Of a stretch of DNA of 64,000 bases, positions 9,430 through 29,055 are shown piece after piece; position 1 is the stretch's first letter; each line of letters opens with the position of its first letter. Under the pieces are notes generated by a model that was not told the DNA's origin, searched no databases, and was given only the letters and a program-made list of their open reading frames with translations. Location of the stretch: assembly GCA_011170285.1 (NCBI GenBank), contig DUEE01000002.1:1-64000 (forward strand). The letters are read 5' to 3'. Source of the DNA: Dehalococcoidia bacterium. Its GTDB lineage: Bacteria; Chloroflexota; Dehalococcoidia; Dehalococcoidales; W498. The position numbers were made by a program, and so were the translations under genes.

Positions 9430-9725
9430 CTCCTTATCTAGGTAGTGTTATAAACAATTACGCAACGTTAATTCATCAGACAAATGTCAAATATGGCTTT
9501 GTGTTCAGAGTTAACATTGGGTCGAAGTGCCTTAAAAACATACTCAGGGTTAGTTAAATCCACCGCTCTTAGGAAAAGGGTAGCATTTGTCCCAACCAGT
9601 GTCAACAGCATTAGCTTCTTAGGGTTTGTCCCTAACAGTTCCGATTATAAGGTAACCCCCTTTGTTTGTTGATATTCTGTTGATATAAAGACATCGCATT
9701 CCGACATCTGCTTTATCAAAAACAA
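9430..9725. other. Intergenic stretch
   Basis: About 296 bases lie between the start of the peptidase gene and the end of the pseudogene on the same strand. No supportable coding frame, RNA or repeat was seen. Confidence 0.4.
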
Positions 9726-10982: not shown

Positions 10983-11273
10983 GGCTATAATGTGTCTCAA
11001 TATAAGTTAGTGAGTTGTCACAATTATAACAGGGTTATGTTAAACATAACAGTAGTATATAAGAGCTGGAGATGTTCAATAACGAAGGATTCTAATGTAA
11101 GAGCTCTATATCATACTCAAAAATAGGTGTTTTGGCATTCGGACCTACTGCCAACGCGGATTATTAATTAGTTGAATACTTTAATTATTACCAGTTCACA
11201 TGGTGGAGTTATAGACAGCGTCCCCCAAATATGATAGACTCAACCAAAATAATGAAGAAGGGGGAGGTATATT

Positions 11274-12026
11274 ATGAAAAAGCTTTTTGGTTATGCCTTG
11301 ATTGGACTGGCACTAGTCAGCCTAGTGCTACCTGGCTGTACCCCAAAGACAACGAAGGTTGTTATTGCCACTGATGCCACGTGGTATCCCTTTGAGTATG
11401 TCGATGAGCAGACTAAGAAGATTGTAGGGTTTGATATTGACTTAATGACCGCCATTGCCGAAAAAGCAGGCATCGAAATTGAGATTAAGGACGTATCCTG
11501 GGATGCGCTTTTAGCTGGGATGGCGCAGTGCCACTATGATGCGGCTATCTCATCGATTAGCATTACAGAAGACCGCTCGAAAGATATGCTATTCTCAGAT
11601 CCCTATTTCCATGTAGGACAGATTGTAGTCGTGCGGTGGGAAAACACCGATATTACAGACAGATATGCATTGTCCGGTAAGGTTGCCGGAACACAAATCG
11701 GGACCACCGGTGCCTTTGCGATTGAGGAGATAGAGGGGGCAACCCTCAAGACCTACGATGATATTGGTCTGGCTTTCCAGGATTTGCTAAACGGGCAAAT
11801 TGATGCCGTTGTCACCGATAATCCCTTAGCTTATGGCTATGTAGGCAGGAACCCTGATAAACTCAAAACGGTGGGCGAGGTCTTCACAAGTGAAGAAATC
11901 GGGATTGCGGTATGTAAGGATAACCCAGACTTGCTGGAAAAAATCAACGACGGTTTGGCAGCCGTTATAGCAGAAGGGCTTATTGAAGAACTGATTGATA
12001 AGTGGTTTGCGCAAGAGCAAATATAA
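11274..12026 (+). CDS. Polar amino-acid ABC transporter, substrate-binding lipoprotein
   Basis: A 250-residue family 3 solute-binding protein (GlnH/ArtJ/HisJ type). Residues 1-22 are a lipoprotein signal with lipobox LPGC and Cys22 as the lipidated residue. The mature domain shows the family markers ATDATWYPFEYVD, GFDIDLMTAIAEKAGI, the SSISITEDR region and a QIGTTGAFAIEE-type second lobe. It captures an amino acid outside the cytoplasmic membrane and delivers it to the permease. The start is firm (GGGGGAGG before the ATG). The permease begins 61 bases downstream and the ATPase follows, so this is one operon. Specificity cannot be set from sequence. Confidence 0.92.
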   Translation: MKKLFGYALIGLALVSLVLPGCTPKTTKVVIATDATWYPFEYVDEQTKKIVGFDIDLMTAIAEKAGIEIEIKDVSWDALLAGMAQCHYDAAISSISITEDRSKDMLFSDPYFHVGQIVVVRWENTDITDRYALSGKVAGTQIGTTGAFAIEEIEGATLKTYDDIGLAFQDLLNGQIDAVVTDNPLAYGYVGRNPDKLKTVGEVFTSEEIGIAVCKDNPDLLEKINDGLAAVIAEGLIEELIDKWFAQEQI

Positions 12027-12087
12027 TTGAAATCATATTTGCGAAGCCTTTGAATACGGGGCTCATAAAGCCATTTCAAGAGGTCTT

Positions 12088-12915
12088 GTGGACGAACAGC
12101 CGAAACTTAAACCCAGCGGCAGTAAACTGGCTTATATCCCTGGCGCTGAAATAGTAGGACGCATTGACCCTTGGTGGGGTCTAGTTATCTTGGTGGTTGG
12201 CTTAACGGTAATTTTGGTTACCGTTAAAGCCGATCCCTTTTGGGATATTACAAAATTTGTTTGGGATGGCGTCCTCGTAACCGCTCTAATTACCATTTCA
12301 TCATTTGCGCTAACTTTAGTAGTGGGTTTGATTGGGGGCTTAGGTCGGCTGGCACGGAACCCGTTTCTTCATGGTATTGCTACGCTTTACGTTGAAATAG
12401 TCAGAGGTATCCCTCTTCTAGTACAGTTAATCTGGTGGTATTTTGCCTTCCCAGTTGTTATCCAACAGATTGGGGAATGGCTCCATATCTCGGTTATAGC
12501 TAACTATGTGGCTAACCCGATTCTTACAGCTATAATGGCCATAACAGTCTGCTATGGAGCTTACATGAGCGAAATTTACCGAGCCGGCATTCAGAGTATC
12601 CCCAAAGGCCAAATAGAAGCCGCCCGTAGCTTAGGAATGTCGCATTTTCAGTCAATGCGACACATTATCTTACCGCAAGCAGTCCGCGTAGTTCTGCCAC
12701 CAGTAGGCAACGAGTTTATTGCTCTGCTCAAGGATTCTTGCCTGGTGAGTGTGGTGGCGGTAGCCGATTTGACCCGCAGGGGGCGTTTATATATGGCCGT
12801 GCACTTTAACCCTATCGAAGTGTGGACAATGGTCGCCTTACTATATTTAGTGATGACTCTGTTTGCAGCTCGCGGAGTAGCCTGGATTGAGAAAAAGTCT
12901 CACTTTGAAAGGTAA
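12088..12915 (+). CDS. Polar amino-acid ABC transporter, permease
   Basis: The 275-residue membrane subunit starts at GTG 12088 behind AAGAGG. Transmembrane segments are visible from about residue 31 ([14 protein letters not shown]) through the end. The cytoplasmic EAA loop that docks on the ATPase is clear ([20 protein letters not shown]). The HisM/GlnP-type signature continues with [15 protein letters not shown]. Only one permease gene is present, so it presumably works as a homodimer. It is placed between the binding protein and the ATPase, 5 bases from the latter. Confidence 0.92.
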
Positions 12916-12920
12916 GCATA

Positions 12921-13652
12921 ATGGACCCAATTATCCATATTGAAAATATTCATAAACATTTCGGCAAGATTCATGCACTACGAGGAGTAGGCTTGGATGT
13001 GCATAAGGGTGAAGCTGTTGTGATTATCGGTCCCTCCGGATCTGGTAAGTCTACTTTACTACGTTGCATCAATCGTCTTGAGGAATACGAAGCAGGCAGA
13101 ATTGTGGTTGATGGAATTCCTTTAGACAGTGCCCAAAATATCAATGCCGTTCGCCGGGAAGTCGGCATGGTATTCCAGTCGTTTAATTTGTTTGCTCATC
13201 TTACGGTGATGGAAAATCTAACATTGGCACAACGCATAGTGCGTAAGCGTTCCAAGGATGAATCAGAAAAAGTTGCCCTTGATCTTTTAGAAAAAGTGGG
13301 AATTCCAGATAAAGCTCAGGCTTACCCTATCCAAATTTCTGGAGGGCAGCAACAACGAGTGGCTATTGCACGGGCTTTGGCGATGAATCCTAAAGTCATG
13401 CTATTCGATGAACCAACGAGTGCGCTCGACCCTGAGATGATCAAAGAAGTGTTGGATGTGATGCTAGCCCTAGCCAAGGAAGGAATGACCATGGTTGTGA
13501 TTTCACACGAGATGGGATTTGCCCGTGCCGCCGCTAACCGCATGATTCTCCTGGATGAAGGAATGATTATTGAAGAATCCACACCGGATAAATTCCTTAC
13601 CTCCAATAATGAGCGTATCAGGATATTCCTGAGCAAGGTGCTACACATGTAA
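12921..13652 (+). CDS. Polar amino-acid ABC transporter, ATP-binding protein (GlnQ-like)
   Basis: A 243-residue ATPase that powers the importer. It has Walker A GPSGSGKS at residues 37-44, Q-loop [13 protein letters not shown], signature [15 protein letters not shown], Walker [12 protein letters not shown] and the switch His in [10 protein letters not shown]. Length and motifs match GlnQ/HisP ATPases. It is the last gene of the three-gene operon. The remaining 320 bases downstream show no clear intrinsic terminator. Confidence 0.94.
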
Positions 13653-13975
13653 ATAGTCACCGCAGATAATGTTGGCGTAAAGTCTTCAAACCATCTTAGA
13701 CACATACTGATTTTATCCACTGCTCCACTATTGATAGCAACCCTGTTACATCGGATATATTTGTCATTTTTGTATGGATAGGTATCGTCGGGTCTTGATA
13801 TTGTCTGGCTCTAATTAACTATTAGCCAATAGGCTCTTAATTACTATAGTATCAACAATATCAGCAGGATGACCTAACTCTTTTTCAATGGCTGTGCTTT
13901 GATAAGTCTTAGGTATAGTACGGTCAACACATTGTTGGTGAGTCGACCATTATGCAATAATCAAGTCGGCCAGTG
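13653..13975. other. Intergenic stretch between convergent genes
   Basis: About 323 bases between the importer ATPase and a small membrane protein on the opposite strand. No gene, RNA or repeat is supportable. Confidence 0.45.
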
Positions 13976-14194
13976 TTATTCCATCTTTTTCCGCAGTATC
14001 ATGACAACCACTGCCCCCACTCCGAAGGCAAGAGAAACTGCAAAAGACACGGGAAATGTCATTGGTACTGGCTGACCACTATATAGTGCTCCAGTGATAA
14101 TGCCCATCACGAATGTTGAGAGCCCCATTACCCAAAAAATAACAAACATGGCCCATGCGGTTATTGACGCTAATGTTTTAAATATATCTGGCAT
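13976..14194 (-). CDS. Small membrane protein, 72 aa
   Basis: Two hydrophobic segments (about residues 10-37 and 47-66) are joined by a short polar turn (YSGQPVP), and the protein ends in a basic tail (LRKKME), suggesting the C-terminus is cytoplasmic. A good Shine-Dalgarno (AGGAGG) precedes the ATG, which supports real translation. No family is recognised. It is divergently placed from dprA and is probably monocistronic. Confidence 0.6.
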   Translation of the reverse strand: MPDIFKTLASITAWAMFVIFWVMGLSTFVMGIITGALYSGQPVPMTFPVSFAVSLAFGVGAVVVMILRKKME

Positions 14195-14339
14195 TTTCCT
14201 ACCTCCTGTTAAATAGTGTGATGATAGTATACTTCATATAGTTTCTTGTCAAGATAGACACACATTTTCTTATTTAGCATAGCATTTCGCAACAAGCTAA
14301 ATTGTCTTCAATTTATCCCTGTGCTAGAATGCCATTACT

Positions 14340-15467
14340 TTGGAGATGAGTAATAAGGATACTAAATACTGGGTGGGGTTTAATATTATACCCGGTATTG
14401 GTCGCGTAAAATTTACCCAGCTTGAGAACTACTTCGGTAGTCTGGAATATGCCTGGCAGGCTACCCCGGCTGATTTAAAGCACGCTGGTCTGGATAGTGC
14501 TTCAATACAGGCCGTCACGTCGTGGCGACCCAAGATTTCCCTGGAAGCAGAGATGGAGAAGCTAGACCGCTATGGGGTCAAAGTCCTCACCTTTCACGAC
14601 CCTGATTATCCATCTCGGCTCAGGGAGATATATGACTATCCATTGATAATTTATGTCAGGGGTTCCTTCCTCCCCCAGGATGAGTGGTGCCTGGCAGTAG
14701 TAGGCACCCGGCGGGCTACTGTTTATGGGCGGCAGGTAACAGAGGAAATAGTAGCTGACCTGGCACGAAGCAGAATCACTATTGTCAGCGGTTTGGCTAA
14801 AGGAATTGACTCTATAGCTCACCATAGTGCCTTAGACGCCGGTGGTAGAAGCATTGCTGTATTTGCCTGCGGACTTGATATTGTTTACCCTGCTGAGAAC
14901 GCAAATATGGCTCTCAGTATCATTCAGCAAGGCGCTCTAATAAGCGAGTATCCTTTAGACACCAGACCTAAAGCCGATAACTTCCCCCGTCGTAATAGAA
15001 TCATGAGTGCACTGAGCCTGGGAGTTCTAGTCGTTGAAGCTGGAGAGATTAGTGGAGCTATGATTACTGCTCGTCTAGCCTTAGAACAAAATAGAGAGGT
15101 GTTTGCTATTCCGGGCAGTATTCTGTCGCCGGCCAGTAGAGGCACTAATCACCTAATCCAAGAAGGGGCGAAGTTAGTCCGTGACTATACTGATATTTTA
15201 GAGGAATTGAACCTGACTGCTGTGGCTCACCAGATAGAATTTAAAGAGGTTATACCGGCTTCTGATAACGAGTCCCTGTTATTAAAGCAGCTCTGTGCTG
15301 AACCGACCCATATTGATGAAGTCTGTCGCACCAGCGGTCTGCCTATATCAACAGTCAGCAGTACTCTGGCTATGATGGAGCTTAAGGGCTTGGTAAAACA
15401 AGTGGGGACTATGAATTATGCTCTGGTTCGGGAAGTAAGGGAGAAATATAGAGTAAAAGTAGATTAG
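14340..15467 (+). CDS. dprA: DNA-processing protein DprA
   Basis: DprA/Smf binds incoming single-stranded DNA and loads RecA during natural transformation. The 375-residue protein has an N-terminal helix-hairpin-helix/SAM-like region (about 10-70) and the Rossmann-like DprA core. Core motifs are AVVGTRRATVYG, SGLAKGIDSIAHHSAL, FPRRNRIMSALS, VVEAGEISGAMITA and VFAIPGS. A C-terminal winged helix covers about 300-365. TTG 14340 and ATG 14346 are both possible starts; a GGAG lies between them, too close to favour either. topA follows after 4 bases. dprA-topA is a common bacterial pairing. Confidence 0.95.
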   Translation: MEMSNKDTKYWVGFNIIPGIGRVKFTQLENYFGSLEYAWQATPADLKHAGLDSASIQAVTSWRPKISLEAEMEKLDRYGVKVLTFHDPDYPSRLREIYDYPLIIYVRGSFLPQDEWCLAVVGTRRATVYGRQVTEEIVADLARSRITIVSGLAKGIDSIAHHSALDAGGRSIAVFACGLDIVYPAENANMALSIIQQGALISEYPLDTRPKADNFPRRNRIMSALSLGVLVVEAGEISGAMITARLALEQNREVFAIPGSILSPASRGTNHLIQEGAKLVRDYTDILEELNLTAVAHQIEFKEVIPASDNESLLLKQLCAEPTHIDEVCRTSGLPISTVSSTLAMMELKGLVKQVGTMNYALVREVREKYRVKVD

Positions 15468-15471
15468 CACT

Positions 15472-17583
15472 GTGAAAAAAAAGTTAGTTATAGTTGAGTC
15501 ACCAGCCAAAGCCAGGACGCTGACTAAGATTTTAGGTAGAGGCTATAGCCTTAAAGCCTCACTGGGTCACATAAGAGATCTGCCTAAGAGCCGATTAGGA
15601 GTAGATATAGAAAATGGCTTTGTGCCAAAATATGTTGTTCCTAAGGAGAAAAAGAAAGTCGTAGCTGAGCTTAAAGAGGCAGCTAAGACTGCATCTACCA
15701 TATATCTAGCCACCGACCCAGACCGTGAGGGTGAAGCAATTTCCTGGCACCTAACCGAGTTAACCAAAACGAACCGTATTACTTACTACCGTGTCGTTTT
15801 TCACGAAATAATCAAGGAAGCAGTCGAGCATGCTTTTAAACATCCTCGTTCTATAGATATGCAATTAGTCAATGCTCAGCAAGCCCGGCGTGTCTTGGAT
15901 AGGCTGGTAGGTTATGAAATTAGCCCATTGCTTTGGCGGAAGGTAAGAAGAGGTCTCTCAGCAGGCAGAGTTCAGTCAGTAGCACTAAGGATTATTGTTG
16001 ACCGTGAGCGAGAAATTAAAGAGTTTACCCCGATTGAATACTGGACTATTGAGGCTGAGTTAATCAAGAAAATACCGGCTGATGAGGCGAAAACTTTTCG
16101 GGCTATGCTGGTTGGTCTTATTGATGGCACCAAGCTGGATATTCATAATCAGGAACAAGCCACCGATATCAATAGTGAACTTGAACAAGCCAGCTACAGT
16201 GTTGTTAAGGTAAAGACTAAGAAGCTAACCCGCCAGCCAGCACCACCATTTATAACCAGCACCCTCCAGCAGGAAGCCTGGCGCAAGCTTCGCTTTACCG
16301 CCAAGCAGACTATGGCAATTGCCCAACAGCTATACGAGGGTCTGACCATAGGTGATGAGGGAAGCGTTGGGCTTATTACCTATATGCGTACTGATTCTAC
16401 CCGGGTAGCCCACTCGGCTTTGGTTGAAGCTAGAGAGTTTATTAGTGATAAGTATGGCTCACAGTTTATTCCACCACATTCCCGTTCCTTCATCAGAGTG
16501 GCAAAGGGGGCGCAGGAGGCGCATGAAGCTATCCGTCCCACTAAAATTTGGCGGGAGCCATCTTTGATTAAGTCATATCTTAATGCGTCTCAATTTAAAC
16601 TTTATCAGCTTATCTGGAAAAGAATGGTGGCTAGCCAAATGTCGGCAGCCCTATTTGATAATACCACTATTGACATTAGAGCCAGATGCCCCGATTCTAA
16701 AACTGATTACCTCCTAAGAACTTCCAGCTCTATTATCACCTTTCCCGGTTTCACTATTCTTTATACCGAGAGCAAAGACGAGAATAAGGAAGAGGAGAAG
16801 AAAAGCTCCCTACTCCCCCATTTGGAAAAAGGTGATGAGCTTGCGCTTCTAGACCTTTTCCCTGAGCAGCATTTTACCCAGCCCCCACCCCACTTTACTG
16901 AAGCCACATTGATTAAGATGTTAGAGCAATGGGGTATAGGACGTCCCAGCACCTATGCCCCTATCATATCCACAATTCAGGAGCGTGCATATGTTATCAA
17001 GGCTAATGGAAGCTTTCAGCCTACAGAGCTAGGAATTGTGGTTAATGACTTGCTGGCTAAACATTTTCCTGATGTTTTTGACATTGAGTTTACGGCTCGT
17101 ATGGAAGAGGAATTAGACCAAATAGCTCAGGAGAACAGGGATTGGGTTAATGTGGTTAAAGACTTTTATATTCCCTTTGAGAAGAGCCTTCAGGATGCCT
17201 CCCTGCTTATGGAAAAGATAAAGTTAGCCGATGAACTTACCGAGGAAATTTGTCCTGAATGTGGCAAGACCTTGGTAGTTAAACACGGGCGCTATGGCAA
17301 ATTCCTAGCCTGTATTGGTTACCCTGAGTGCAAATATACTAAATCCTTTCAGGTTAAGATGGGCGCTAAGTGCCCCGAGTGTGGTGCCGAGATAGTGCAG
17401 AAGATAAACAAAAAGAAACGCACCTTTTATGGCTGCAGTAACTACCCTAACTGCAAGTTTGCCATCAATTCTAAACCACTCCCCCAACCCTGCCCCAAAT
17501 GTGGTGGACTCCTCACCCAATACAGAAAAAACCTGGCAAAATGCACCAAATGTGAGTATAAGGGTAAGCTTCCGCAGGATTGA
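15472..17583 (+). CDS. topA: DNA topoisomerase I (type IA)
   Basis: Relaxes negative supercoils through a covalent 5'-phosphotyrosine intermediate. The 703-residue protein starts at GTG. It has the N-terminal TOPRIM domain (KLVIVESPAKARTL, acidic triad in ATDPDREGEA), the SAGRVQSVALRI motif and catalytic Tyr304 in YMRTDSTR. The C-terminus carries two four-cysteine zinc ribbons starting CPECGKTL and CPECGAEI, plus a third short one beginning CPKCGG. Size is normal. It is directly preceded by dprA. The native next gene was evidently xerC, whose truncated 5' copy begins 2 bases after the topA stop. Confidence 0.97.
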   Translation: MKKKLVIVESPAKARTLTKILGRGYSLKASLGHIRDLPKSRLGVDIENGFVPKYVVPKEKKKVVAELKEAAKTASTIYLATDPDREGEAISWHLTELTKTNRITYYRVVFHEIIKEAVEHAFKHPRSIDMQLVNAQQARRVLDRLVGYEISPLLWRKVRRGLSAGRVQSVALRIIVDREREIKEFTPIEYWTIEAELIKKIPADEAKTFRAMLVGLIDGTKLDIHNQEQATDINSELEQASYSVVKVKTKKLTRQPAPPFITSTLQQEAWRKLRFTAKQTMAIAQQLYEGLTIGDEGSVGLITYMRTDSTRVAHSALVEAREFISDKYGSQFIPPHSRSFIRVAKGAQEAHEAIRPTKIWREPSLIKSYLNASQFKLYQLIWKRMVASQMSAALFDNTTIDIRARCPDSKTDYLLRTSSSIITFPGFTILYTESKDENKEEEKKSSLLPHLEKGDELALLDLFPEQHFTQPPPHFTEATLIKMLEQWGIGRPSTYAPIISTIQERAYVIKANGSFQPTELGIVVNDLLAKHFPDVFDIEFTARMEEELDQIAQENRDWVNVVKDFYIPFEKSLQDASLLMEKIKLADELTEEICPECGKTLVVKHGRYGKFLACIGYPECKYTKSFQVKMGAKCPECGAEIVQKINKKKRTFYGCSNYPNCKFAINSKPLPQPCPKCGGLLTQYRKNLAKCTKCEYKGKLPQD

Positions 17584-17585
17584 CC

Positions 17586-17690
17586 ATGCAAGATATTTTT
17601 AATAGATATATTAATTATCTTGAGGCGGAGCGGAATGCTTCACCTTATACCGTGCGTAATTATACTACTGATTTACTGAGCTTCTTTTAT
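17586..17690 (+). pseudogene. Truncated 5' copy of xerC
   Basis: The first 35 codons match the start of the intact xerC at 21949 (MQ-x-x-FNRYI-x-YLEAERNASP, then YTVRNYTTDLL). Roughly a dozen of 105 bases differ, mostly at third codon positions. Similarity begins exactly at the ATG and ends near 17690, eleven bases before the stop of the WYL gene on the other strand. The fragment sits 2 bases after the topA stop, where xerC would be expected in a dprA-topA-xerC operon. It is therefore probably the remnant of the original xerC. Confidence 0.88.
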
Positions 17691-17700
17691 CATTGTTCCC

Positions 17701-18519
17701 TTATTCATAGTTCTGATTGTGCCTCTTCTTAATTATTGACCAACGTATTATGTAATAGCTAGTAGCGTCACTATCAGCTTGGCGAGCTTTCTTAAGTGCT
17801 TCCTTGACTTTTTGTGGGTCTGCACCTTCCTTCTCTAGTTTATGCGCTTCATACAAGTAGGGCAAAGCTGGGCTCCATTCCTCTGGGAAAGGCGTTAGGA
17901 TTGATTCTTCGAAGAGTTTCTGCCTATCATATCGGGCATAAGTTCTAGTACCCTCACGGCCGCTGTATGAAACTCTTCCCCTAGATACTCGTTCTCGTTT
18001 AGTTCGTTCGTCCTTATCCTCGGTGTCTTCTGGAATAGACGAATGAGTCTCATCTGTAGGCACTAACTCAACCGGCTCTAATATAGTATCACCTAAATCC
18101 CCCCATCCTTCAGTGACCCAAGTGCTTGGAGTATATGTACGTGGTATTCCATATGCCTCGCCAGACAAACGAGCCCACAATACTCTCGATATCTTGAATG
18201 TACGAACTTCACAGCGGTAATGACAATACGCTTCAAAATATTCGTCTCCAAGTCCATACATGTCAATGTCTCTAATCTTAACTGGTGGGTCTCCCGGCAG
18301 TGGGTTGCCAGTTTCGTATTTCATTGTCAAGCGCTGCTTAGTTGTATATGCCAAGTCAAGCAACCAGTGCATTTCTACCTCTTTACTTGACCTCTTTGGG
18401 GGAATAATCGCTGTAGTCCGATGTGGCGGGGTCTTCTCCTTACGCCGGCTTGAGGATTTATTTAAGATGAAAAAGAGGAATACTGCAATACAAATAAATA
18501 CGAAAATAAACCAGCCCAT
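17701..18519 (-). CDS. Membrane-anchored WYL-like domain protein
   Basis: The 272-residue protein has one N-terminal transmembrane helix (residues 2-20, WFIFVFICIAVFLFFIL) and a basic linker. Residues about 52-118 resemble a WYL domain: a Y/T-rich strand followed by IRDIDMYGLGDEYFEAYCHY and then EVRTFKISRV. A long charged linker (about 155-210) leads to a C-terminal alpha-helical region with EAHKLEKEGADPQKVKEALK. WYL domains usually sense ligands or nucleic acids and are common beside anti-phage genes. It is encoded 21 bases downstream of the helicase/PLD gene on the same strand and shares its island. Confidence 0.65.
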   Translation of the reverse strand: MGWFIFVFICIAVFLFFILNKSSSRRKEKTPPHRTTAIIPPKRSSKEVEMHWLLDLAYTTKQRLTMKYETGNPLPGDPPVKIRDIDMYGLGDEYFEAYCHYRCEVRTFKISRVLWARLSGEAYGIPRTYTPSTWVTEGWGDLGDTILEPVELVPTDETHSSIPEDTEDKDERTKRERVSRGRVSYSGREGTRTYARYDRQKLFEESILTPFPEEWSPALPYLYEAHKLEKEGADPQKVKEALKKARQADSDATSYYIIRWSIIKKRHNQNYE

Positions 18520-18540
18520 TTAGTCATACCTCCAAACCTG

Positions 18541-21522
18541 CTAAAGACGACGGGTGTATTTACATCTAGGATAGCTTGAGCAACCGAGAAATCTATTCCC
18601 TCTCCTCCGATTTCTCCTAACAACTAAGTAACCATTGTACTTGCATCCCGTTCCATCTGGTCCAGGACAAGGCTCTGATGTCTGAACTCCCGCGGCATGT
18701 TCCTCTAGTAGCTCGAGGTTTCTAATTATTTCCTCGATAGCTGATTGGCCTGTAAATCTTCTCATCTGCTCACCGCTGTCGCGATGGCTAAGGATATTAA
18801 GGCTGCCTTCCCATGCAACGTCATTATCAAGAATGGCTACCTTCTGATGCATGTTGCGACGTTCAATCACATTTACTCCAATACTCCGCAATTGCCCCAC
18901 TACAATTTCTGATTGACTGGCCATCTCACCAACCTGTTGATTTAAAGGCCTTGTGTAAATTCTTATGTCTATACCTTGTCCTATCATGGCTCTGAAATAA
19001 TCCATGAACGTACCGGCACGGTTGACAGAAACAAATGGGCTGAGTATCATAAGTCGTTGCTGGACTCCCCTAATATCTTGTAGAAACTGGGCCCAGAAAT
19101 TACGCTCAGTATATAGTTCTCCGGATACTGGCTGAGTGTCCACACTTCTAGCTGCCAGCAATGCATCAGCCCATTTCTCAAAGTCAGTAGTGAAATAGTT
19201 GTCAACCAGACTTTCTGACTCAGAGTATTCCGCCTTCTGCTGGAAATGACGAATTATTCGCGATAATAGAGATTCACGATCTAGTTCACCCAATAAACGC
19301 TTTGTATTAGCCACCAGATATAGTTTATCTTTAGCTCGAGTCATGGCTACATTCAAAACTCGTAAGGCATCAGAATCACGCTTTGTATCATCTAGCATAG
19401 GAGCAGTTTTGAGGCCTATGCCCTCAGTACTGTCAAATATGATTATTTGTTGCTCGCCACCTTGAAACATATGGATAGTGCTTACACGCACACGGTTCAA
19501 TAGTTGCCAGTCCTTAGCAATCTTGTTTATTAACCGTGCTTGGTGTCTATATGGCGTAACTATGCCGATTTTACAATCCGGTGTCTGTTGTATTATCTTC
19601 CTAGCAAGTGTAGCGCAGACCAGTGCGTGATAAAGATTGAATCGTCCACCAGTGGAAATCTAGCTACACCACGCGTTCATCTTGCCGGTTTTAATTAACA
19701 CCAAAGGTGATGACGAAACGCCATCCGTAAGACTGTACCTTCCAGTAGATAAGTGGTCTCTCAAGACACCTTGGTAAATAAAGCGATTAGAAATTTCGGA
19801 GATGGCAGGAACCATTCGATACTGTGTATCTAATAACGTAACCCTTTCATCCAACTGAGCTTCCTTTATGTCCCAGATGCCCAAGACATCGAAGATACTT
19901 CTACCAAGCCATCGCTGTGCCATTGGTTTCTCTGAGATACAGATTGGCGGTAGTTGCAGAAAATCACCAACTATAGTAACAGATTGACAGCATCGCCCAA
20001 CTGCCCAATATAGGTGCGGTAATGGAGCCATACTGGCTTCGTCAAGAATAAGGACATCAAACTTCCTACTAGGAAATTGCTTCGCTGTAAAAGTCTTCGT
20101 CAGTGTTGTAGCAACTAATCTAGCTTCGGATAGAACCTTATTCTGTATCTCTTCCAGCTCCTTGTTAATTTCAGCTATCCTGGATAGAATAGCATCTTTA
20201 CGAACCTCATACTTATTTCTCTGCTCTTCTAGTTCTCCTTGTGGAATCCCAATTTCCTGCAGCAAAATGTTAGCTTCTGCTCTGGTCTCAGCCAGTTCAT
20301 TATCTTTAGCTTTACAAGAGCTCTCAAGGGTGCTGCGGAGTTTGATATTAGCCTCAAAAGCACGTACCAGTGAGTCACGACGAATGCCAGCTTGGTCAAT
20401 TTCATGCTGGATTTTGTCAGGCTGAAGTCCTGTCAGGAACCTTTTTATTGCTCCTGCGGATTGAGCTTCCACTAATCTTCTTCTATTTCTTTCCTGCATT
20501 TCTTCAAGTTGGTTCAACTTTGCCTGTGTCTCTTCTAACTTACCTGAGGTTTGTGATAGAGAGGTCTTAACACTATCAAGCTCAGAAGACAAGGTTTTGA
20601 TTTTTTCTAAAATGTGGAGTATACTGCCAAAACTTGAAATAGTATTATCGATTTGTACCTTCTCAGCTTCCAATGTCTGTCTCTCTTGACTAAGTGTTTC
20701 GCCCCTTTTCTCGGCAATCTTGTCTAGAAGAACCAGTTCATATTTACTCTCTAAGATTTTCAGGTGTTCCTCTTGTGGCTTTCCTAGCCGAACTAATCTT
20801 CCTTCTTGATAGAAAGAAGAACCCTTTAAATGGTCAGCGATATCTTCGAGGGCTTCGTCGACTGCATTATTGGCATGCGAAACGAGAAGCACACTACGTC
20901 CCGCATTTAAATGAGCTTCTACTGCTTTTGCTACAGTCTTGGTCTTACCTGTTCCAGGTGGACCCCAGACTATTGACAACTTGGAGGAATAGGAGGTTTC
21001 TATCGCTCGCTTTTGAGCGTCGTTCGGAGGTTCTTGACCGAGTGAGTAGCTTATTGCGCTTTGAGTTGAAGAGCTTGACCCAGAAAGTGTACCAAGAAAT
21101 AACGCCTCACTGAGGGCAAAATTTGCTTTCTCTGACCCACTATGAGACTCAGTCAACTTATTTTTAAGTAGTTCAAGAAGATACCAAGAATTCGTGTGCA
21201 ATGTAGCAGTTGATATAAACTTGCCCAAAAATCGTTCTATACCGATTTCAACTTCTAAGCCCTGTGTGAGTAATACTTGGGCGGAGTACCTGTAATTATT
21301 GATTTCTATTTCTGCGGGTGAGTCATCTAGGACGGTAAGGAAATTTTCTAGGTTGAATAAGTATACATTAAGTGCTGATATCTCCCGCAGAAATCGTCCG
21401 TTAAATAATTTGACAATGTTCCCACCCCTGTTTCTACCTCTAGGATTCTTAAGGGCATCAATTTCTTCATCGAGTGATTGGATTAGCTCCTCGGCAAGTT
21501 TAGATAACATCTTTTCAGCCAT
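18541..21522 (-). pseudogene. SF1 helicase-PLD nuclease fusion (Mokosh type II-like), split by one amber codon
   Basis: One continuous frame of 993 codons contains a single stop, TAG at 19660-19662 (codon 621); the frame is otherwise open and protein-like across it (NAWCS, stop, ISTGGRFNLYHALV). Order of domains: an N-terminal region, Walker A GPPGTGKT near residues 187-194, a long coiled coil (about 275-450), and helicase motifs ILDEASMAPL, GDFLQLPP and TLDTQYRM. The motif-V/VI part follows (ISTIHMFQGGE, NVAMTRAKDKLYLV). Next come a phospholipase-D-type nuclease module with HQK at residue 892 and a C-terminal topoisomerase-type zinc ribbon. COG1112-like helicase plus PLD in one chain matches the described type II Mokosh protein; the zinc ribbon is extra. 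It may be inactive, or a sequencing error. Confidence 0.8.
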
Positions 21523-21948
21523 TTTTAAATTCGAATTGATGACTACGAAACATTATACAACTTTCGCGGCCAGATGTAATTTAGATAGCGTCTCCTGCTC
21601 ATAGGAAATTTACAAATCGCACTAAATAACGTTATGTTATTCTCGACAATCTTGTGTACTAATAAAACTTATTATCAATAAATTTGAAAATAGAATTACG
21701 GCGAAGCAAAAAGTGATGTAATGCGCGAGAAGAAAATTTTATTTCACCTCTTAACTAGTTTGCACCTCAAGTAATTTTCATACATGCGAGGCGAAGTCAT
21801 GGCAATATCATCTTAGAGATTGCTTCGGCGCAAAGCGCCTCACAATGACAGATATTCGTAATGACAAAAAGGGGAGTTACGCGTTACTAAGGTACTGGAT
21901 GAGCGCGGCATTTGCTAACGATACAGGAAACCTAGTAAACTTCATCCT
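21523..21948. other. Intergenic stretch upstream of xerC, right end of island
   Basis: No gene is supportable. It contains one copy of a dispersed repeat (21816-21850) and AT-rich sequence that presumably holds the promoters of the divergent helicase gene and of xerC. It shows no similarity to the dprA-topA operon that xerC would normally follow. Confidence 0.5.
21816..21850. repeat. Dispersed repeat of the GAGATTGCTTCG...CAATGACA type
   Basis: The segment reads GAGATTGCTTCGGCGCAAAG followed by CGCCTCACAATGACA. The internal GGCGCAAAGCGCC is a short palindrome. Sequences of this type are common intergenic repeats in many bacterial and archaeal genomes. It is the only copy I found in the window. 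Confidence 0.5.
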
Positions 21949-22869
21949 ATGCAAGAGGTTTTTAATAGATATATAGATTACCTTGAGGCGGAGCGGAATG
22001 CTTCACCTTATACGGTGCGCAATTATACTACCGATTTGCTGGACTTCTTTCACTCTCTCAGCGCCAAAGGGATTGGTTCACTTAAAGAAGTGGATAAACA
22101 TACCTTGCGGGATTATATGGCTCATCTTATGGAGCAAGGTTTTGTTAAGGCAAGCATTGCCCGTAAGCTATCGGCTATTCGCTCTTTTTACCGCTACTTA
22201 CTTAGAGAAGAAATACTATCCACCAGCCCGGTAGCCACTACCTTTTCACCCAAGCTAGATAAGCGACTACCCCCATTTCTTGCTATGGAAGAGATGCTGC
22301 GACTTCTGGAAGCCCCTGATTTATCCACGCCACAGGGACAGCGTGACCGGGCTTTGCTGGAACTACTTTATGCTTCAGGCATCAGGGTAAGCGAATTGGT
22401 AAACCTAAATGTGGAGCAGGTTAATCTGGATAGCCGTGAAATTCGCGTCTTAGGAAAGGGCTCTAAGGAGCGACTAGTGTTAATGGGTCAGCCGGCAGCC
22501 ATGGCTCTGAGTGCTTACATTAGCCAGGGCAGACCCAAGCTCCTGGGTAAGAAAGGAAGTAGCGCCCTGTTCCTTAATCGCTACGGGGAACGCCTCCCGG
22601 AACGAAGGGTTCAAAGAATATTAGTAAAATATGCTAATATAGCTGGTATAGATAAGGGGGTTCATCCCCATATGCTGCGTCATACCTTTGCCACACATCT
22701 CCTTGATGGGGGGGCTGATTTAAGAGTGGTTCAGGAGCTTCTGGGTCATGCCAACTTGTCTTCCACCCAGATTTACACCCATGTAACCACAAGTCAGGCA
22801 AGAAAGGTTTACCTCTCAGCTCACCCCATGGCACAAAAAAATAAAACTGACAAACTCGTTACAGAATAG
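21949..22869 (+). CDS. xerC: Tyrosine recombinase XerC/XerD
   Basis: A 306-residue site-specific recombinase that resolves chromosome dimers at dif. It has an N-terminal SAM-like core-binding domain (residues 1-90). The catalytic domain shows Arg146 (SGIRVSEL), Lys in LGKGSKERL, His241 and Arg244 (HMLRHTFATH), His267 (LLGHANLSS) and nucleophile Tyr276 (IYTHV). All catalytic residues are present. A partial second copy of its 5' end lies 4.36 kb upstream beside topA, showing that the gene was displaced from that operon or acquired with the island. It might serve mobile elements that exploit Xer. Confidence 0.94.
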   Translation: MQEVFNRYIDYLEAERNASPYTVRNYTTDLLDFFHSLSAKGIGSLKEVDKHTLRDYMAHLMEQGFVKASIARKLSAIRSFYRYLLREEILSTSPVATTFSPKLDKRLPPFLAMEEMLRLLEAPDLSTPQGQRDRALLELLYASGIRVSELVNLNVEQVNLDSREIRVLGKGSKERLVLMGQPAAMALSAYISQGRPKLLGKKGSSALFLNRYGERLPERRVQRILVKYANIAGIDKGVHPHMLRHTFATHLLDGGADLRVVQELLGHANLSSTQIYTHVTTSQARKVYLSAHPMAQKNKTDKLVTE

Positions 22870-22920
22870 CTGGGAATTGAGCTAGCTTTTAACAAAATCT
22901 TAGATTAGGAGGCTTGGAAG

Positions 22921-24000
22921 TTGAAAATAGATAATAGACTACAGAAATTGCGCCAAAGATTATCCGAAGAGGATATTGAGGCTATCTTTATCTCTCAGCC
23001 GGAGAACAGGCATTACCTTTCTGGCTTTGATGGTTCAGCCGGTTTTCTATTGATTACACCGCAAAAATCTACCTTGGCTACCGATTTTCGCTATATAGAG
23101 CAAGCCAAAGGACAAGCTCCCGACTACGAGATTTTTCAAATTTCAGGTAATATGGTTAACTGGTTCCCTGAACTAGTAGCTGGGTTGGGGAGGCTGGGGT
23201 TTGAAGCCGGACATATTACCTTTGCTATGTATCGGCAGTTAACTGATATATTGAATAAAGCACAATCTCAACTCAAGCTTATTCCTACCGACGGACTGGT
23301 AGAGTCCCTCCGAGCTATAAAAGAGCCTGAGGAGATTGAGCTTATTACCAAAGCAGTAGCCATTAGTGATAACGCCATAGACCATGTTCACAATATAATT
23401 CATATAGGTATGAGTGAAAAGGAATTAGCCTGGGAGATAGAGAAATTTATGCGAGAGAATGGCAGCGAGTCTATACCCTTTGATATTATTGTGGCTTCAG
23501 GTCCAAATTCTGCTTTACCTCACGCCCAGCCCTCATCGCGCGCCATATGCTCTGGCGAGCCGATATTAATAGATATTGGAGCCAGGGTTGGAGGTTACTC
23601 CAGCGACTTGAGCCGCACTATCTGCCTTGGGGTTCCTGACGATATCTTCAATAAGGTATATAATACTGTTCTTGGAGCACAACTAGCGGCGCTGGCTATA
23701 ATTAGTGAGGGTATGACTGGTGGACAGATTGACAATGTGGCAAGGACGGTTATTCAGGAAGCAGGCTATGGTGAAGCCTTTGGGCATAGTTTAGGTCATG
23801 GTGTAGGTCTTGCACCACACGAGCAGCCACGCTTGAGTCCCAATTCACCAGAATATTTTGTTGATGGCATGGTTTTCACGGTTGAGCCTGGCATTTATCT
23901 TTCCGGTTGGGGAGGAGTGAGAATTGAAGATTTAGCAGTAATGGAAAATGGCAAACCCAGAGTAATTTCACAAGCTAGAAAGGTTGGAAATGATAAGTAG
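22921..24000 (+). CDS. M24-family Xaa-Pro peptidase
   Basis: A 359-residue aminopeptidase P/prolidase-type enzyme starting at TTG after AGGAGG. The N-terminal creatinase-like domain (1-125) has the NRHYLSGFDGSAGFLL motif. The C-terminal pita-bread domain carries all five metal ligands: two Asp in LIDIGARVGGYSSDLSRT, His in HSLGHGVGL, Glu in FTVEPGIYL and Glu in VRIEDLAV. It probably removes N-terminal residues before proline in cytoplasmic peptides. Its end overlaps the start of efp by 11 bases, a frequent bacterial arrangement. Confidence 0.93.
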   Translation: MKIDNRLQKLRQRLSEEDIEAIFISQPENRHYLSGFDGSAGFLLITPQKSTLATDFRYIEQAKGQAPDYEIFQISGNMVNWFPELVAGLGRLGFEAGHITFAMYRQLTDILNKAQSQLKLIPTDGLVESLRAIKEPEEIELITKAVAISDNAIDHVHNIIHIGMSEKELAWEIEKFMRENGSESIPFDIIVASGPNSALPHAQPSSRAICSGEPILIDIGARVGGYSSDLSRTICLGVPDDIFNKVYNTVLGAQLAALAIISEGMTGGQIDNVARTVIQEAGYGEAFGHSLGHGVGLAPHEQPRLSPNSPEYFVDGMVFTVEPGIYLSGWGGVRIEDLAVMENGKPRVISQARKVGNDK

Positions 24001-24547
24001 CAGTGAATTAAGGAAGGGAATTACTATTGAACTGGATGGATCCCTGTATCAGGTGCTTGAATGCCAGCATATTAAGATGAAGCGAACCGCATTGTCTCGG
24101 CTCAAACTTCGTGATATACGTGGCGGTCATACTATCGAGCGAACCTTTCAGTCCAGTGAGAAGTTCATTCGGGCACGGCTTGAATATCGCCGGATGCAAT
24201 ACCTCTATAATGAGGGCAATTTATATTACTTTATGGATGAGGAAAATTACGAGCAGATACCCCTTAGTGTCTCCCAACTGGGTGATGCTGTTAACTACTT
24301 GAAAGAAGGCCTGTCATTAGAGGTATCAAGCTATAAGGATGAGCTAATAGGCGTAGAGTTACCTATTACTGTTGAGCTTCAGGTAATTGATACCGCTCCT
24401 GGTTTTAAAGGAGATACCGCTACCGCTGGGAATAAATCAGCTAATCTGGAGACAGGCATTATCATCCAGGTTCCCCTATTCGTTAATACCGGAGATATTA
24501 TCAAGGTTGACACTCGCAGTGGTAGCTACCTGGAAAGGGTTAGTTGA
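23990..24547 (+). CDS. efp: Translation elongation factor P
   Basis: EF-P rescues ribosomes stalled at polyproline. From ATG 23990 (AAAGG, spacing 6) the protein is 185 residues with the KOW-like N-domain (1-65), the middle OB domain (MQYLYNEGNLYYFMD) and the C-terminal OB domain, including the PGFKGDTATAG and LETGIIIQVPLFV signatures. The tip of the N-domain loop is unusual. Instead of the typical HVKPGKG, it reads HIKMKRTALSR, about one residue shorter and with no PG or KG. K31 and R32 are the candidate tip residues. A TTG at 23984 would add two residues. Confidence 0.94.
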   Translation: MISSSELRKGITIELDGSLYQVLECQHIKMKRTALSRLKLRDIRGGHTIERTFQSSEKFIRARLEYRRMQYLYNEGNLYYFMDEENYEQIPLSVSQLGDAVNYLKEGLSLEVSSYKDELIGVELPITVELQVIDTAPGFKGDTATAGNKSANLETGIIIQVPLFVNTGDIIKVDTRSGSYLERVS

Positions 24548-24548
24548 A

Positions 24549-25196
24549 TTGCTGAAAGCCGATTTTCATGTTCACACTGAATATTCAATGGACAGTAATA
24601 CACCTTTGGAGAAAGTGATTAGTCGCTGCCTGCAGACCGGGATAAACTGTATTGCCGTATCTGACCATGGCACCATTGAAGGGGCGGTAAAGATGCAGGA
24701 CATAGCCTCCTTCCCCGTAATTGTTGCTGAGGAAATTTTAACCCCAATTGGTGACATTATCGGTATGTTTCTTAAACAGACTATACCCAGTGGTCTTTCT
24801 GCTGAACAGGTAATATCCCGAATCAGGGCTCAAGGTGGCTTGGTATACATCCCACACCCTTTTGACACATTATTCAGGCACGCTCTAGGTGGTAACATGC
24901 TAGAAGCACTGGTGGAGCAAATTGATATCATAGAGGTATTTAATGCCCGAAGTCCTTTCCCCTGGTATTCAGCCAAAGCTCGAGCCTTTGCCCAAAAGTA
25001 TGGTATTCCGGGAAGTGCCGGCAGTGATGCCCATACTCCTGGCGAGATAGGTAATGCCTATGTAGAGATGCCTGAATTCAGTGGTAAGGATGATTTTCTA
25101 AACGCTTTAGCCCAAGGCAAGATTTTTGGGCATATGGCAAGCCCCTTGGTTCACTTTGGCAGCCTTTGGGCAAGAGTAAGAAAAAAGTTCCAATAG
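24549..25196 (+). CDS. PHP-domain metal-dependent phosphoesterase
   Basis: The frame extends further upstream inside efp, but homology begins only at ADFHVHTEYSMDS, so the probable start is TTG 24549, just after the efp stop. The 215-residue protein has PHP metal-binding motifs: HVH near the N-terminus, then AVSDHGTIEG, VYIPHPFD and AGSDAHTPGEIG. It lacks any polymerase domain and resembles stand-alone PHP enzymes such as TrpH-like 3',5'-nucleotide or oligonucleotide phosphatases. The exact substrate is unknown. Translation is probably coupled to efp, and the formyltransferase-like gene follows within 10 bases. Confidence 0.85.
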   Translation: MLKADFHVHTEYSMDSNTPLEKVISRCLQTGINCIAVSDHGTIEGAVKMQDIASFPVIVAEEILTPIGDIIGMFLKQTIPSGLSAEQVISRIRAQGGLVYIPHPFDTLFRHALGGNMLEALVEQIDIIEVFNARSPFPWYSAKARAFAQKYGIPGSAGSDAHTPGEIGNAYVEMPEFSGKDDFLNALAQGKIFGHMASPLVHFGSLWARVRKKFQ

Positions 25197-25205
25197 ATAG
25201 TAGTG

Positions 25206-26057
25206 ATGTATAAGCTAGGCTGGTTTTCTACAGGTAGAGATAGGGCAGCCAGAGACTTATTTAAAGCGGTACAGAACAGCATCAAGCTTGGTGATATTGA
25301 GGCTGAGATAGCCTTTGTTTTTTGCAACCGTGAACCAGGTGAATCACAGGAGAGCGACTTATTCCTCAAGCTGGTTGAAGGTTACCATATCCCTCTCATT
25401 TGCCTTTCCTACCGAAAGTTTAAAGTTAATAAGGGGGCTTCTATTACAGGACAGGAAGGAACTTTACCTCTATGGCGGCTTGATTATGACCGAGAGGTTA
25501 TGTATCGGTTACAGGGCTTTCACCCTGACCTATGCGTACTAGCTGGTTATATGCTTATCGTGGGTGAAAAGATGTGCCACCGATACGATATGATTAACCT
25601 TCATCCGGCGGCTCCGGGTGGACCCCCAGGAACATGGCAGGAGGTAATCTGGAAGCTAATTGACAGTAAAGCTTATGAAACAGGGGTAATGATGCACTTG
25701 GTAGCCCCAGAGCTGGACAAGGGACCACCGGTAACCTATTGCACATTTCCTATTAGGGGCAAAGCATTTGATAGATATTGGGATGAAGTGGAGGAGCATT
25801 CAGAGAAAGAGATTGAAAAGAAGCCGGGCGGAAATAATCACCTGTTCAGGCTCATCCGCGAACAAGGGCTGTCTAGAGAATTCCCTCTAACAATATCTAC
25901 CCTTAAGGCTTTTAGCCAGGGTAGAATAAAGATAACAGCAGACAAACGACTCATTGATGCTAATGGAAGACCAATTAAAGGCTATAATCTGACCGACGAG
26001 ATAAATGAAGTGGTAAAAGAGCCGTTTTCTAAAGAGCCTGACGAACTCGATTACTAA
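25206..26057 (+). CDS. Formyltransferase-family protein (PurN-like)
   Basis: About 283 residues from ATG 25206 (GTG 25203 is an alternative). It has the formyl-transferase Rossmann fold features: LGWFSTGRDRAARDL at the N-terminus, DLCVLAGYMLIVG in the middle and INLHPAAPGGPPGTWQE, where the catalytic Asn-His-Asp set of PurN lies around N-L-H-P. A later ETGVMMHLVAPELDKGP strand follows. The C-terminal ~90 residues are an extra helical part not found in short PurN proteins. Whether it acts on GAR is uncertain. It is the last gene of the M24-efp-PHP cluster. Confidence 0.7.
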   Translation: MYKLGWFSTGRDRAARDLFKAVQNSIKLGDIEAEIAFVFCNREPGESQESDLFLKLVEGYHIPLICLSYRKFKVNKGASITGQEGTLPLWRLDYDREVMYRLQGFHPDLCVLAGYMLIVGEKMCHRYDMINLHPAAPGGPPGTWQEVIWKLIDSKAYETGVMMHLVAPELDKGPPVTYCTFPIRGKAFDRYWDEVEEHSEKEIEKKPGGNNHLFRLIREQGLSREFPLTISTLKAFSQGRIKITADKRLIDANGRPIKGYNLTDEINEVVKEPFSKEPDELDY

Positions 26058-26060
26058 AGA

Positions 26061-26215
26061 AAGCCTGAAGGGGCGAAGCCCCTCTAAAGAAACTATCTTC
26101 TCCTTTGCAGGAGAGATACTAAAGGAGAGTTAAAGAGAGGCGAAGCCTCTCTTATATAACCAGTCCCCCCTTCCCCTTAATAAGGGGAAGGGGGATAAAG
26201 GGGGATGGGGTTACC
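26061..26215. repeat. Dispersed GC-palindrome repeat, copy A
   Basis: Composite intergenic repeat made of three palindromes: AGGGGCGAAGCCCCT (26069-26083), GAGAGGCGAAGCCTCTC, and CCCCTTCCCCTTAATAAGGG continuing into GAAGGGGG. A tail GGATAAAGGGGGATGGGGTT follows. Related copies lie near 27976, 33440, 43043 and 57024. All are intergenic. This copy has no nested insert and serves as a reference. Confidence 0.85.
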
Positions 26216-26243
26216 AATAAAAAACCTAAAGGGGGTGAGGTAG

Positions 26244-27236
26244 ATAAACAATTTTATCTGTTTTGACCTTGAAGGACCGCTATCACCTCAGGATAATGCC
26301 TATGAGTTAATGAAACTTTTCCCCAACGGGGATAAGATTTTTGAGGTCATTAGTCGTTATGATGACCTGCTAACACTTGAGGAAAGGGAGGATTATGAGC
26401 CGGGGGATACCCTGTCTCTCATAGTGCCATTCCTGGCGCTGCATAATATTTCAGAGGATAATATCGCCACCCTAGCCGCTAAAGCCAGCCTAACTGGCGG
26501 TGCTTACAAACTTATATCCTGGCTTGAATATAGTGGCTGGAAGGTATTTTGTATTAGCACCAGTTACGAACAGTATGCCATTCATATTACCCAGAAATTA
26601 GGTATTTATGCTCATAATGTTGCTTGTACACCATTCCCTTTAGATAAATTCCACACAACTTTATGTAAAGAAGGCCTTAAGTTGTTACACCAGACTGAGG
26701 AAGACATTCTAACTATGCGCCCTGTTGCCGATGATGACCGAATTAAACAAAGCTTGGATAATTTCTTTTGGGAAAAACTGCCGACCACTGATTTAGGGGA
26801 AGCAATAAAAGAGTTGAAGCCGGTAGGGGGACGACGCAAGGTAGCTGCCTTAAACAGATTTGCTGATAAATATGACCAACCGTTATCCAACTGGGTAGTG
26901 GTTGGTGATAGCATTACCGATTTCAGAATGCTCCAGGCTGTGGAGGAGGAGAAAGGGTTAGCTATCTCCTTTAACGCTAATGAATATGCCCTGCCCTACT
27001 CAACAATGAGCCTGGCTTCCACACTTATTAGTTACCTAACCGAGGTGCTGGAGGTGTGGCAAAAAGGTCAACGAACAGCAGTGGAGAAAATAGTAAAAGA
27101 TAAAGAGAAGGCTGGAGGTGCGGCAGACGGGCCTTACTTTCACTGGCTATCGGGTAGAGAAAATATAGATGAAGTCATTGAGATTCACAAGAGAATGCGG
27201 CGTCTGGTTAGAGAAGAGACTGGCAAGCTGGGATAA
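26244..27236 (+). CDS. HAD-superfamily hydrolase with probable AUA start
   Basis: The HAD motif I (ICFDLEGPLSPQDNAYE) is encoded upstream of the first ATG at 26310, in the same frame. Between the upstream in-frame TAG (26241-26243) and that motif no ATG, GTG or TTG exists. The first codon is ATA at 26244, with the Shine-Dalgarno-like GGGGGTGAGG just before it. This gives 330 residues. Later motifs include FCISTSYEQY (motif II region), GGRRKVAALNRF with a conserved Lys, and VVVGDSITDFRML (motif IV). The EGPL-x-x-x-DNA pattern resembles a family also found in archaea (EhaR-like); the substrate is unknown. Confidence 0.75.
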   Translation: MNNFICFDLEGPLSPQDNAYELMKLFPNGDKIFEVISRYDDLLTLEEREDYEPGDTLSLIVPFLALHNISEDNIATLAAKASLTGGAYKLISWLEYSGWKVFCISTSYEQYAIHITQKLGIYAHNVACTPFPLDKFHTTLCKEGLKLLHQTEEDILTMRPVADDDRIKQSLDNFFWEKLPTTDLGEAIKELKPVGGRRKVAALNRFADKYDQPLSNWVVVGDSITDFRMLQAVEEEKGLAISFNANEYALPYSTMSLASTLISYLTEVLEVWQKGQRTAVEKIVKDKEKAGGAADGPYFHWLSGRENIDEVIEIHKRMRRLVREETGKLG

Positions 27237-27276
27237 TTATTTATTACCTATAGTTCATCAAATAGGAAAAAGTTAT

Positions 27277-27932
27277 ATGGACAACGAAGATTGGCTAGAA
27301 GACCCTCTCATGGAAATCAGCAAAGGTTCTTACCAATATCGCAAACTAAAGAGCCCTAATGATAAACATAATGACTTATGGAATAGTTTCCACTTTGCTA
27401 CCAGACTTAAGCTAGATGGAGCCGAGCATTTCTGCAGACAAGTGCTCGGTGCAGCCAGTATGCCGGACGACCTCGGTCTGCCACTTTTGTCCCATAGACA
27501 GTTAAAATGGTATTTAGATGCATTCTTTTTTGAATTGATGTCAGCATATTATACACTCTTACAGGAATTAAACATCGTTTTTGCCTACTATCCGGTATTT
27601 AAGCCAGAGGATGTCAACTGGAATACTATAAGAGGCAAATTAACTGAAAGATTGACCGAGTATATGGATAAAGAATGGGAAAAAGAATGGTTTGATAAAG
27701 TCCGTAGGTACAGACATATGGCAACCCATCATTACATTGTTCCGACAGGCTCGGGGAAAGCGGGATGAGGAGATAAACCCTTGGATTATACAACACATCA
27801 TGTTTTTATACCCTGTTTAGACAATACCGGAAATTTAAAAGATGAAGAAATCAGTGTTTGTAAAGACTATTTGAAGAATATGGTTAGGTATATTAGCTCG
27901 GTTTGGGAAAAGATGGCACAGGATTTCAATTA
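27277..27932 (+). pseudogene. HEPN-like protein interrupted by an in-frame TGA
   Basis: From ATG 27277 (AGGAAAAAG upstream) the frame encodes 163 residues and stops at TGA 27766-27768. The same frame then stays open through LDYTTHHVFIPCLDNTG, ISVCKDYLKNMVRYISSVWE and stops at TAG 27930-27932. The C-terminal part reads as a natural continuation. The sequence is helical, with an R-x4-6-H motif (VRRYRHMATHH), suggesting a HEPN-type RNase or nucleotidyl-transfer partner similar to Cthe_2314-like proteins. Alternatively, a second short protein could start at TTG 27781. The single stop probably makes this a recent pseudogene. Confidence 0.55.
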
Positions 27933-27975
27933 GGTTAAAGTATGCTTTTAGAGGCTAATGATATTGGCAATGGAG

Positions 27976-28060
27976 TTTTAGAGGGGCGAAGCCCCTCTTA
28001 AGAAATTCTCTTCCCCCTTCCCCTTAGTAAGGGGAAGGGGGATTAAGGGGGATGGGGTTC
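27976..28060. repeat. Dispersed GC-palindrome repeat, copy B
   Basis: GAGGGGCGAAGCCCCTC (27981-27997) is followed by CCCCTTCCCCTTAGTAAGGG extending into GAAGGGGG and the tail GGATTAAGGGGGATGGGGTT. It is a shorter version of copy A, lacking the central GAGAGGC palindrome. The tail ends 3 bases before the GTG start of the PfkB gene, so its GGGG appears to provide that gene's ribosome-binding site. Confidence 0.85.
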
Positions 28061-28062
28061 AA

Positions 28063-29046: not shown

Positions 29047-29055
29047 TTATAAGGT

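What the first reader, a model, noticed from the sequence alone, without database searches (positions are those of the whole stretch)
18541..21522. Mokosh type II-like helicase/PLD protein carrying one amber codon
Seen: one 993-codon frame with an SF1 helicase (Walker A GPPGTGKT, DEAS-type motif II, QYRM), a long coiled-coil insert, a PLD-like HQK nuclease motif and an added C-terminal topoisomerase-type zinc ribbon, interrupted only by TAG at 19660-19662. Known: Mokosh type II anti-phage systems are a single protein with a COG1112-like helicase and a PLD nuclease. Inferred: this is a Mokosh relative with an extra zinc ribbon. It may be dying, read through, or affected by an assembly error.
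Basis: partly seen in the sequence, partly recalled or inferred. Interest (0 to 1): 0.75.

Follow-up and report, generated by a model that had tools for sequence, protein, structure and literature searches.

The report
Helicase-nuclease gene with amber stop
A bacterial gene for one large helicase-plus-nuclease protein, resembling but not belonging to the Mokosh anti-phage systems, is cut by a single recent stop codon here, while intact relatives elsewhere carry an immune TIR domain or sit beside a known anti-phage operon.

Summary
On the minus strand (21522->18541) lies a 993-codon frame with an SF1 helicase, coiled-coil insert, single-HKD PLD nuclease and C-terminal four-cysteine ribbon, broken only by TAG at 19660-19662. 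Intact 66% and 62% relatives keep every part. Membership in Mokosh type II is not supported: a real MkoC scores 929 bits over its whole PADLOC profile, this protein 139 bits over 30%. The helicase tree puts MkoA and MkoC in their own clades and AU tests reject grouping the window with either (p 5e-5, 2e-7). It belongs to a third UPF1-like lineage, helicase-PLD-zinc ribbon, rare and patchy in Chloroflexota. That lineage has a TIR-fused member and one member directly upstream of a complete Zorya type I operon, so a defence role is likely. The core folds like IGHMBP2, UPF1 and SETX, the PLD like Nuc and Zucchini. The gene and a WYL-like gene form a 4.36-kb insert between topA and xerC that duplicates the first 102 nt of xerC. 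The TAG is a substitution in a gene still looking constrained, with no suppressor tRNA and no recoding: a recent null, a strain variant or a consensus error.

The parts
18541..21522 (-). 993-codon helicase-PLD-zinc ribbon gene with one in-frame TAG
   Evidence: intact relatives L004, L005
19660..19662 (-). in-frame TAG, codon 621, inside RecA domain 2; relatives carry a sense codon there
21190..21423 (-). N-terminal beta-barrel, OB-fold-like, residues 34-111
   Evidence: AlphaFold2 secondary structure; OB reading by analogy with the UPF1 family
20941..20964 (-). Walker A GPPGTGKT, residues 187-194
20125..20700 (-). coiled-coil helical insert, residues 275-466
   Evidence: AlphaFold2 model, pLDDT mostly 77-93
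20032..20043 (-). motif II DEAS, residues 494-497
18718..19119 (-). PLD nuclease domain, residues 802-935
   Evidence: Pfam PLDc_2; Foldseek Nuc, NucT, Zucchini, BfiI
18826..18849 (-). HKD motif HQKVAILD, residues 892-899, followed by GSLN
   Evidence: invariant H, K, D, GSLN in six members
18562..18669 (-). C-terminal topoisomerase-type four-cysteine ribbon, residues 952-987
17701..18519 (-). downstream gene, 21 nt after the helicase stop: N-terminal hydrophobic segment plus WYL-like domain, no HTH
   Evidence: weak Pfam WYL 20.0 bits (cut-off 21.8); aligns with the WYL core of HTH-WYL regulators
17586..17687 (+). displaced first 102 nt of xerC, left of the insert
   Evidence: 89% identical to 21949-22050
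21949..22869 (+). intact xerC, right of the insert
21552..21580 (-). promoter-like site ATTACA-17-TATAAT, 30 nt upstream of the start codon
   Evidence: consensus match only, 15 found against 9.5 expected in the region

Best explanation
This is a disrupted copy of a mobile, single-protein helicase-nuclease of the UPF1-like SF1 family. It belongs to a lineage distinct from Mokosh (helicase-PLD-zinc ribbon), most likely an intracellular defence protein against phages or other foreign nucleic acid. Proposed working, inferred: the helicase with its OB-like barrel loads on and moves along single-stranded RNA or DNA; the coiled coil couples ATP turnover to activation or assembly; two chains pair their single HKD motifs into one PLD active site, as in Nuc and Zucchini; the ribbon helps hold the substrate. 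In this genome the TAG would stop translation at residue 620, removing the rest of RecA domain 2, the PLD and the ribbon, so the product should be inactive. Shown: domain content, distinct lineage, mobile-looking insertion, no suppressor tRNA found, no relaxed constraint. Inferred: substrate, dimerisation, defence role.
For: Domains and catalytic residues. Fold of the core like SETX, IGHMBP2, UPF1, DNA2 and of the PLD like Nuc, NucT, Zucchini, BfiI and SauUSI. Own lineage: the clade holding it is 99% supported apart from MkoA (98%) and MkoC (100%). Defence links of homologs: TIR_2 fused to the N-terminus in G227 (46 bits); homolog in G539 directly upstream of ZorA, ZorB, ZorC and ZorD (163, 228, 294, 979 bits). 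Patchy spread: 2 of 156 order genomes, 6 of 393 class genomes (E<=1e-40), a 64% fragment in a Thermodesulfovibrionales MAG, distant relatives on plasmids. Insert between topA and xerC, which are near neighbours without it in most relatives tested. TAG: 44 tRNAs, none CTA, over 1.379 Mb; 276 of 876 long frames end in TAG. Window-branch changes after the TAG 18/369, before it 46/612.
Against: The window's own neighbours are housekeeping genes (dprA, topA, xerC, pepP, efp), as are those of L004, L005 and L202; only one homolog was seen beside a known defence operon and one with TIR. No activity is shown. Some clade members have lost the HKD motif or the PLD, so cleavage may not be the general function.
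Confidence: 0.7

Rival explanations
1. It is a true Mokosh type II protein (MkoC) with an added zinc ribbon, as first proposed.
For: Same order of parts: helicase, then single-HKD PLD at the C-terminus; MkoC profile hit 139 bits spanning helicase end and PLD.
Against: Match covers profile 771-1109 of 1136, real MkoC covers 6-1135 at 929 bits. MkoA model scores higher than MkoC. MkoC is its own clade (100/99) and AU test rejects adding the window family, p 1.7e-7.
Confidence: 0.07
2. It is a chromosomal DNA-repair or RNA-processing helicase-nuclease, not a defence protein.
For: Closest solved folds include DNA2, SETX and UPF1; neighbours in the window and in L005 include topA, dprA, polA and mutM.
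Against: Present in 2 of 156 genomes of the order and 6 of 393 of the class, inserted at different sites, relatives on plasmids, TIR fusion and Zorya neighbour.
Confidence: 0.2
3. The TAG is a sequencing, assembly or consensus error and the gene is intact in the living strain. (This can be true together with the best explanation of the protein.)
For: No other stop or frameshift in 993 codons; no loss of constraint after the TAG; the record is a fragmentary assembly of 27 contigs, 88% complete.
Against: It is a clean substitution, not a homopolymer slip; nothing in hand shows read disagreement.
Confidence: 0.4
4. The TAG is read as an amino acid (pyrrolysine or suppression).
For: The frame stays open and constrained on both sides.
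Against: No CTA-anticodon tRNA among 44 found over 1.379 Mb; TAG ends 276 of 876 long open frames; same-frame TAG junctions (16) are no commoner than TAA ones (17). The assembly is 88% complete, so a missed tRNA is not fully excluded.
Confidence: 0.02

Closest known systems
Mokosh type II (MkoC)
   Same: One protein with a UPF1/COG1112-like helicase followed by a single-HKD PLD nuclease (PMC10013915).
   Different: Different helicase clade, only 30% of the profile matched, added C-terminal ribbon, different N-terminal region.
Mokosh type I (MkoA + MkoB)
   Same: Helicase part scores 177 bits to MkoA.
   Different: No kinase domain, nuclease in the same chain instead of a second gene, separate clade, AU p 4.9e-5.
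CoCoNuT CnuH/CnuE (type III-C has PLD)
   Same: UPF1-like helicase with OB stalk and coiled-coil insertion after Walker A, coupled to nuclease effectors (PMC11090510).
   Different: No McrB/McrC-type genes beside it in the window; single PLD fused in the same chain; no direct sequence test against CnuH was made.
UPF1 / IGHMBP2 / SETX / DNA2 helicases
   Same: Helicase core fold, TM-score to target up to 0.73.
   Different: No PLD or such ribbon fused there; eukaryotic functions.
Nuc, NucT, Zucchini, BfiI PLD nucleases
   Same: Single-HKD PLD fold, TM-score to Nuc 0.74.
   Different: Stand-alone or fused to other domains, not to an SF1 helicase.

Membership tests
Mokosh type II (MkoC) | full-length match to the MkoC profile | tested here: not met
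   139 bits over 771-1109/1136 against 929 bits over 6-1135 for a genuine MkoC
Mokosh type II (MkoC) | helicase and PLD in one chain | tested here: met
Mokosh type II (MkoC) | helicase inside the MkoC clade | tested here: not met
   MkoC clade 100/99 without it; AU p 1.7e-7
Mokosh type I (MkoA/MkoB) | separate mkoB PLD gene next to an MkoA helicase (with a kinase domain in the reference used) | tested here: not met
   No kinase match, no second PLD gene seen beside it; AU p 4.9e-5
UPF1-like SF1 helicases | AAA_11 + AAA_12 core with UPF1/IGHMBP2 fold and OB-like barrel | tested here: met
PLD nuclease superfamily | HxKx4D followed by GSxN, Nuc-like fold | tested here: met
PLD nuclease superfamily | second HKD in the active site, supplied by a dimer | not testable with these tools
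   one HKD per chain; no multimer modelling available
CoCoNuT type III | McrB-like GTPase and McrC genes in the locus | tested here: not met
   none recognised by eye among the ORFs of window 12000-30000; no profile search was run on all of them
Anti-phage defence system | protection against phages | not testable with these tools
   only indirect: TIR fusion and Zorya neighbour of homologs

The most novel reading that the evidence does not exclude
A distinct, apparently undescribed family of single-protein immune helicase-nucleases (UPF1-like helicase, coiled coil, PLD, topoisomerase-type ribbon), which acquired the helicase-PLD plan separately from MkoC, can take on TIR effectors and can ride with Zorya.
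Probability: 0.5. Interest if true: 0.6.

Novelty: new variant of a known kind. Interest (0 to 1): 0.45.

Why it matters
It separates a look-alike lineage from Mokosh and gives it an immune context (TIR fusion, Zorya neighbour), so profile searches that call such proteins Mokosh would mislabel them. If the family defends, the helicase-PLD plan of Mokosh type II arose or was reused more than once. The topA-xerC junction is shown as an insertion site in Dehalococcoidales that leaves a duplicated xerC start.

Tried and rejected
Recoding of TAG: rejected on tRNA content and terminator usage. Long-dead pseudogene: rejected, no excess of changes after the TAG. Ribbon captured from the neighbouring topA: rejected as unneeded, since relatives in other loci have it too and the topA match is weak (36% over 33 aa). 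Conserved two-gene system with the WYL-like gene: not supported, no match to it in L004-L009, although a genuine MkoC in Hymenobacter also has a WYL gene next to it. Viral origin: no close relative in phage records or viral contigs. RNA families in 15-24 kb: none. The C-terminal piece alone found no solved relative by sequence, only by fold.

Full report
Check of the observation. The frame lies on the minus strand, 21522 to 18541, 993 codons with one TAG at 19660-19662. Pfam finds AAA_11 and AAA_12, a PLD-like domain just above its cut-off and a topoisomerase-type ribbon just below its cut-off. The same parts are intact in L004 (Dehalococcoidales, 66%) and L005 (Dehalococcoidia, 62%), so this is a real gene. 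A third close relative, L006 from a Thermodesulfovibrionales MAG (64%), is a fragment with a frame change near its HKD motif.

What kind of protein. The AlphaFold2 model (12 sequences, mean pLDDT 80.6) shows an N-terminal beta barrel, a helicase with a helical insert at 275-466, a PLD domain and a poorly modelled C-terminus. Foldseek places the core with SETX, IGHMBP2, UPF1, Sen1 and DNA2. The C-terminal part alone (mean pLDDT 78.7) matches Nuc, Zucchini, NucT and BfiI. H, K, D and GSLN are invariant over six members down to 26% identity. There is one HKD per chain, so a dimer is expected from what is known of Nuc and Zucchini; this is inference.

Not Mokosh by descent. As yardsticks, a Hymenobacter plasmid protein scores 929 bits over the whole MkoC profile and an Oscillatoria plasmid protein 923 bits over the whole MkoA profile; the window protein reaches 139 and 177 bits on parts. 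In a tree of helicase cores MkoA and MkoC are each starred clades and the window family lies in neither. AU tests reject joining it to MkoC (p 1.7e-7) or MkoA (p 4.9e-5). With three further homologs, all ten PLD-bearing members, most with ribbons, fall on one side of a branch at 99%, together with helicases whose PLD is lost, degenerate or absent. The tree is unrooted and the reference sets are small, mostly from plasmids.

Defence context. A 1270-residue member in G227 carries an N-terminal TIR domain (PF13676, 46 bits against a cut-off of 28). A member in G539 is followed by ZorA, ZorB, ZorC and ZorD in the same direction. Other members, including the window's, stand among housekeeping genes. 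Distribution is sparse: 2 of 156 genomes of the order, 6 of 393 of the class.

Insertion site. In most Dehalococcoidales relatives tested topA is followed closely by xerC; some have a gap of up to about 1 kb with another gene. In the window 4.36 kb lie between them. The first 102 nt of xerC stand directly after topA and again, 89% identical, at the true xerC. The insert has 42.2% G+C against 44.7% for the window. The genus mate G001 has a shorter version of the same xerC-start duplication without the cargo. An integration by homology or a site-specific event at the xerC start is a reasonable inference; the mechanism is not shown.

The stop codon. It changes a position that is a sense codon in the relatives. 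There is no CTA-anticodon tRNA among 44 tRNAs in 99.7% of the assembly, and TAG is an ordinary terminator. Changes unique to the window branch are no denser after the TAG (18 of 369) than before it (46 of 612). So the change is recent, a strain variant or an error. If real, the product ends at residue 620 and loses the later helicase motifs, PLD and ribbon; the next in-frame start candidate is a TTG at 19500, which would not restore the helicase.

Literature. The primary Mokosh paper is not held. PMC10013915 and PMC10952713 describe Mokosh II as helicase plus PLD or as holding a PLD-like domain, PMC11291487 states that Mokosh degrades viral transcripts, and PMC11090510 describes CnuH, a UPF1-like helicase with a coiled-coil insertion coupled to nucleases including PLD. 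No paper describing this exact family was found in the searches made, which cover open-licence papers only.

Noticed in passing
window 17586-17687 and 21949-22050: Duplicated first 102 nt of xerC flanking a 4.36-kb insert between topA and xerC; G001 (L045 1201-1266 and 1491-1556) has a cargo-free version.
   Followed up: partly
window 17701-18519 (-): Probable membrane-anchored WYL-like protein without HTH, 21 nt downstream of the helicase; no close relative in the 60 relatives searched.
   Followed up: partly
L201 (G539:C24) 651-11255: Helicase-PLD homolog directly upstream of a complete Zorya type I operon.
   Followed up: yes
L176 (G227:C62) 6610-10422 (-): TIR - helicase - PLD - zinc ribbon fusion protein of 1270 residues.
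   Followed up: yes
L046, L048, L050: Other gene cargo of about 1 kb between topA and xerC in related genomes, suggesting a variable site.
   Followed up: no
L014, L017, L018, L019: Clade members whose PLD region has lost the HKD motif.
   Followed up: partly
window 21785-21851: Stretch with two weaker copies elsewhere in the genome (80% identity over 67 and 41 nt), possibly a small dispersed repeat.
   Followed up: no
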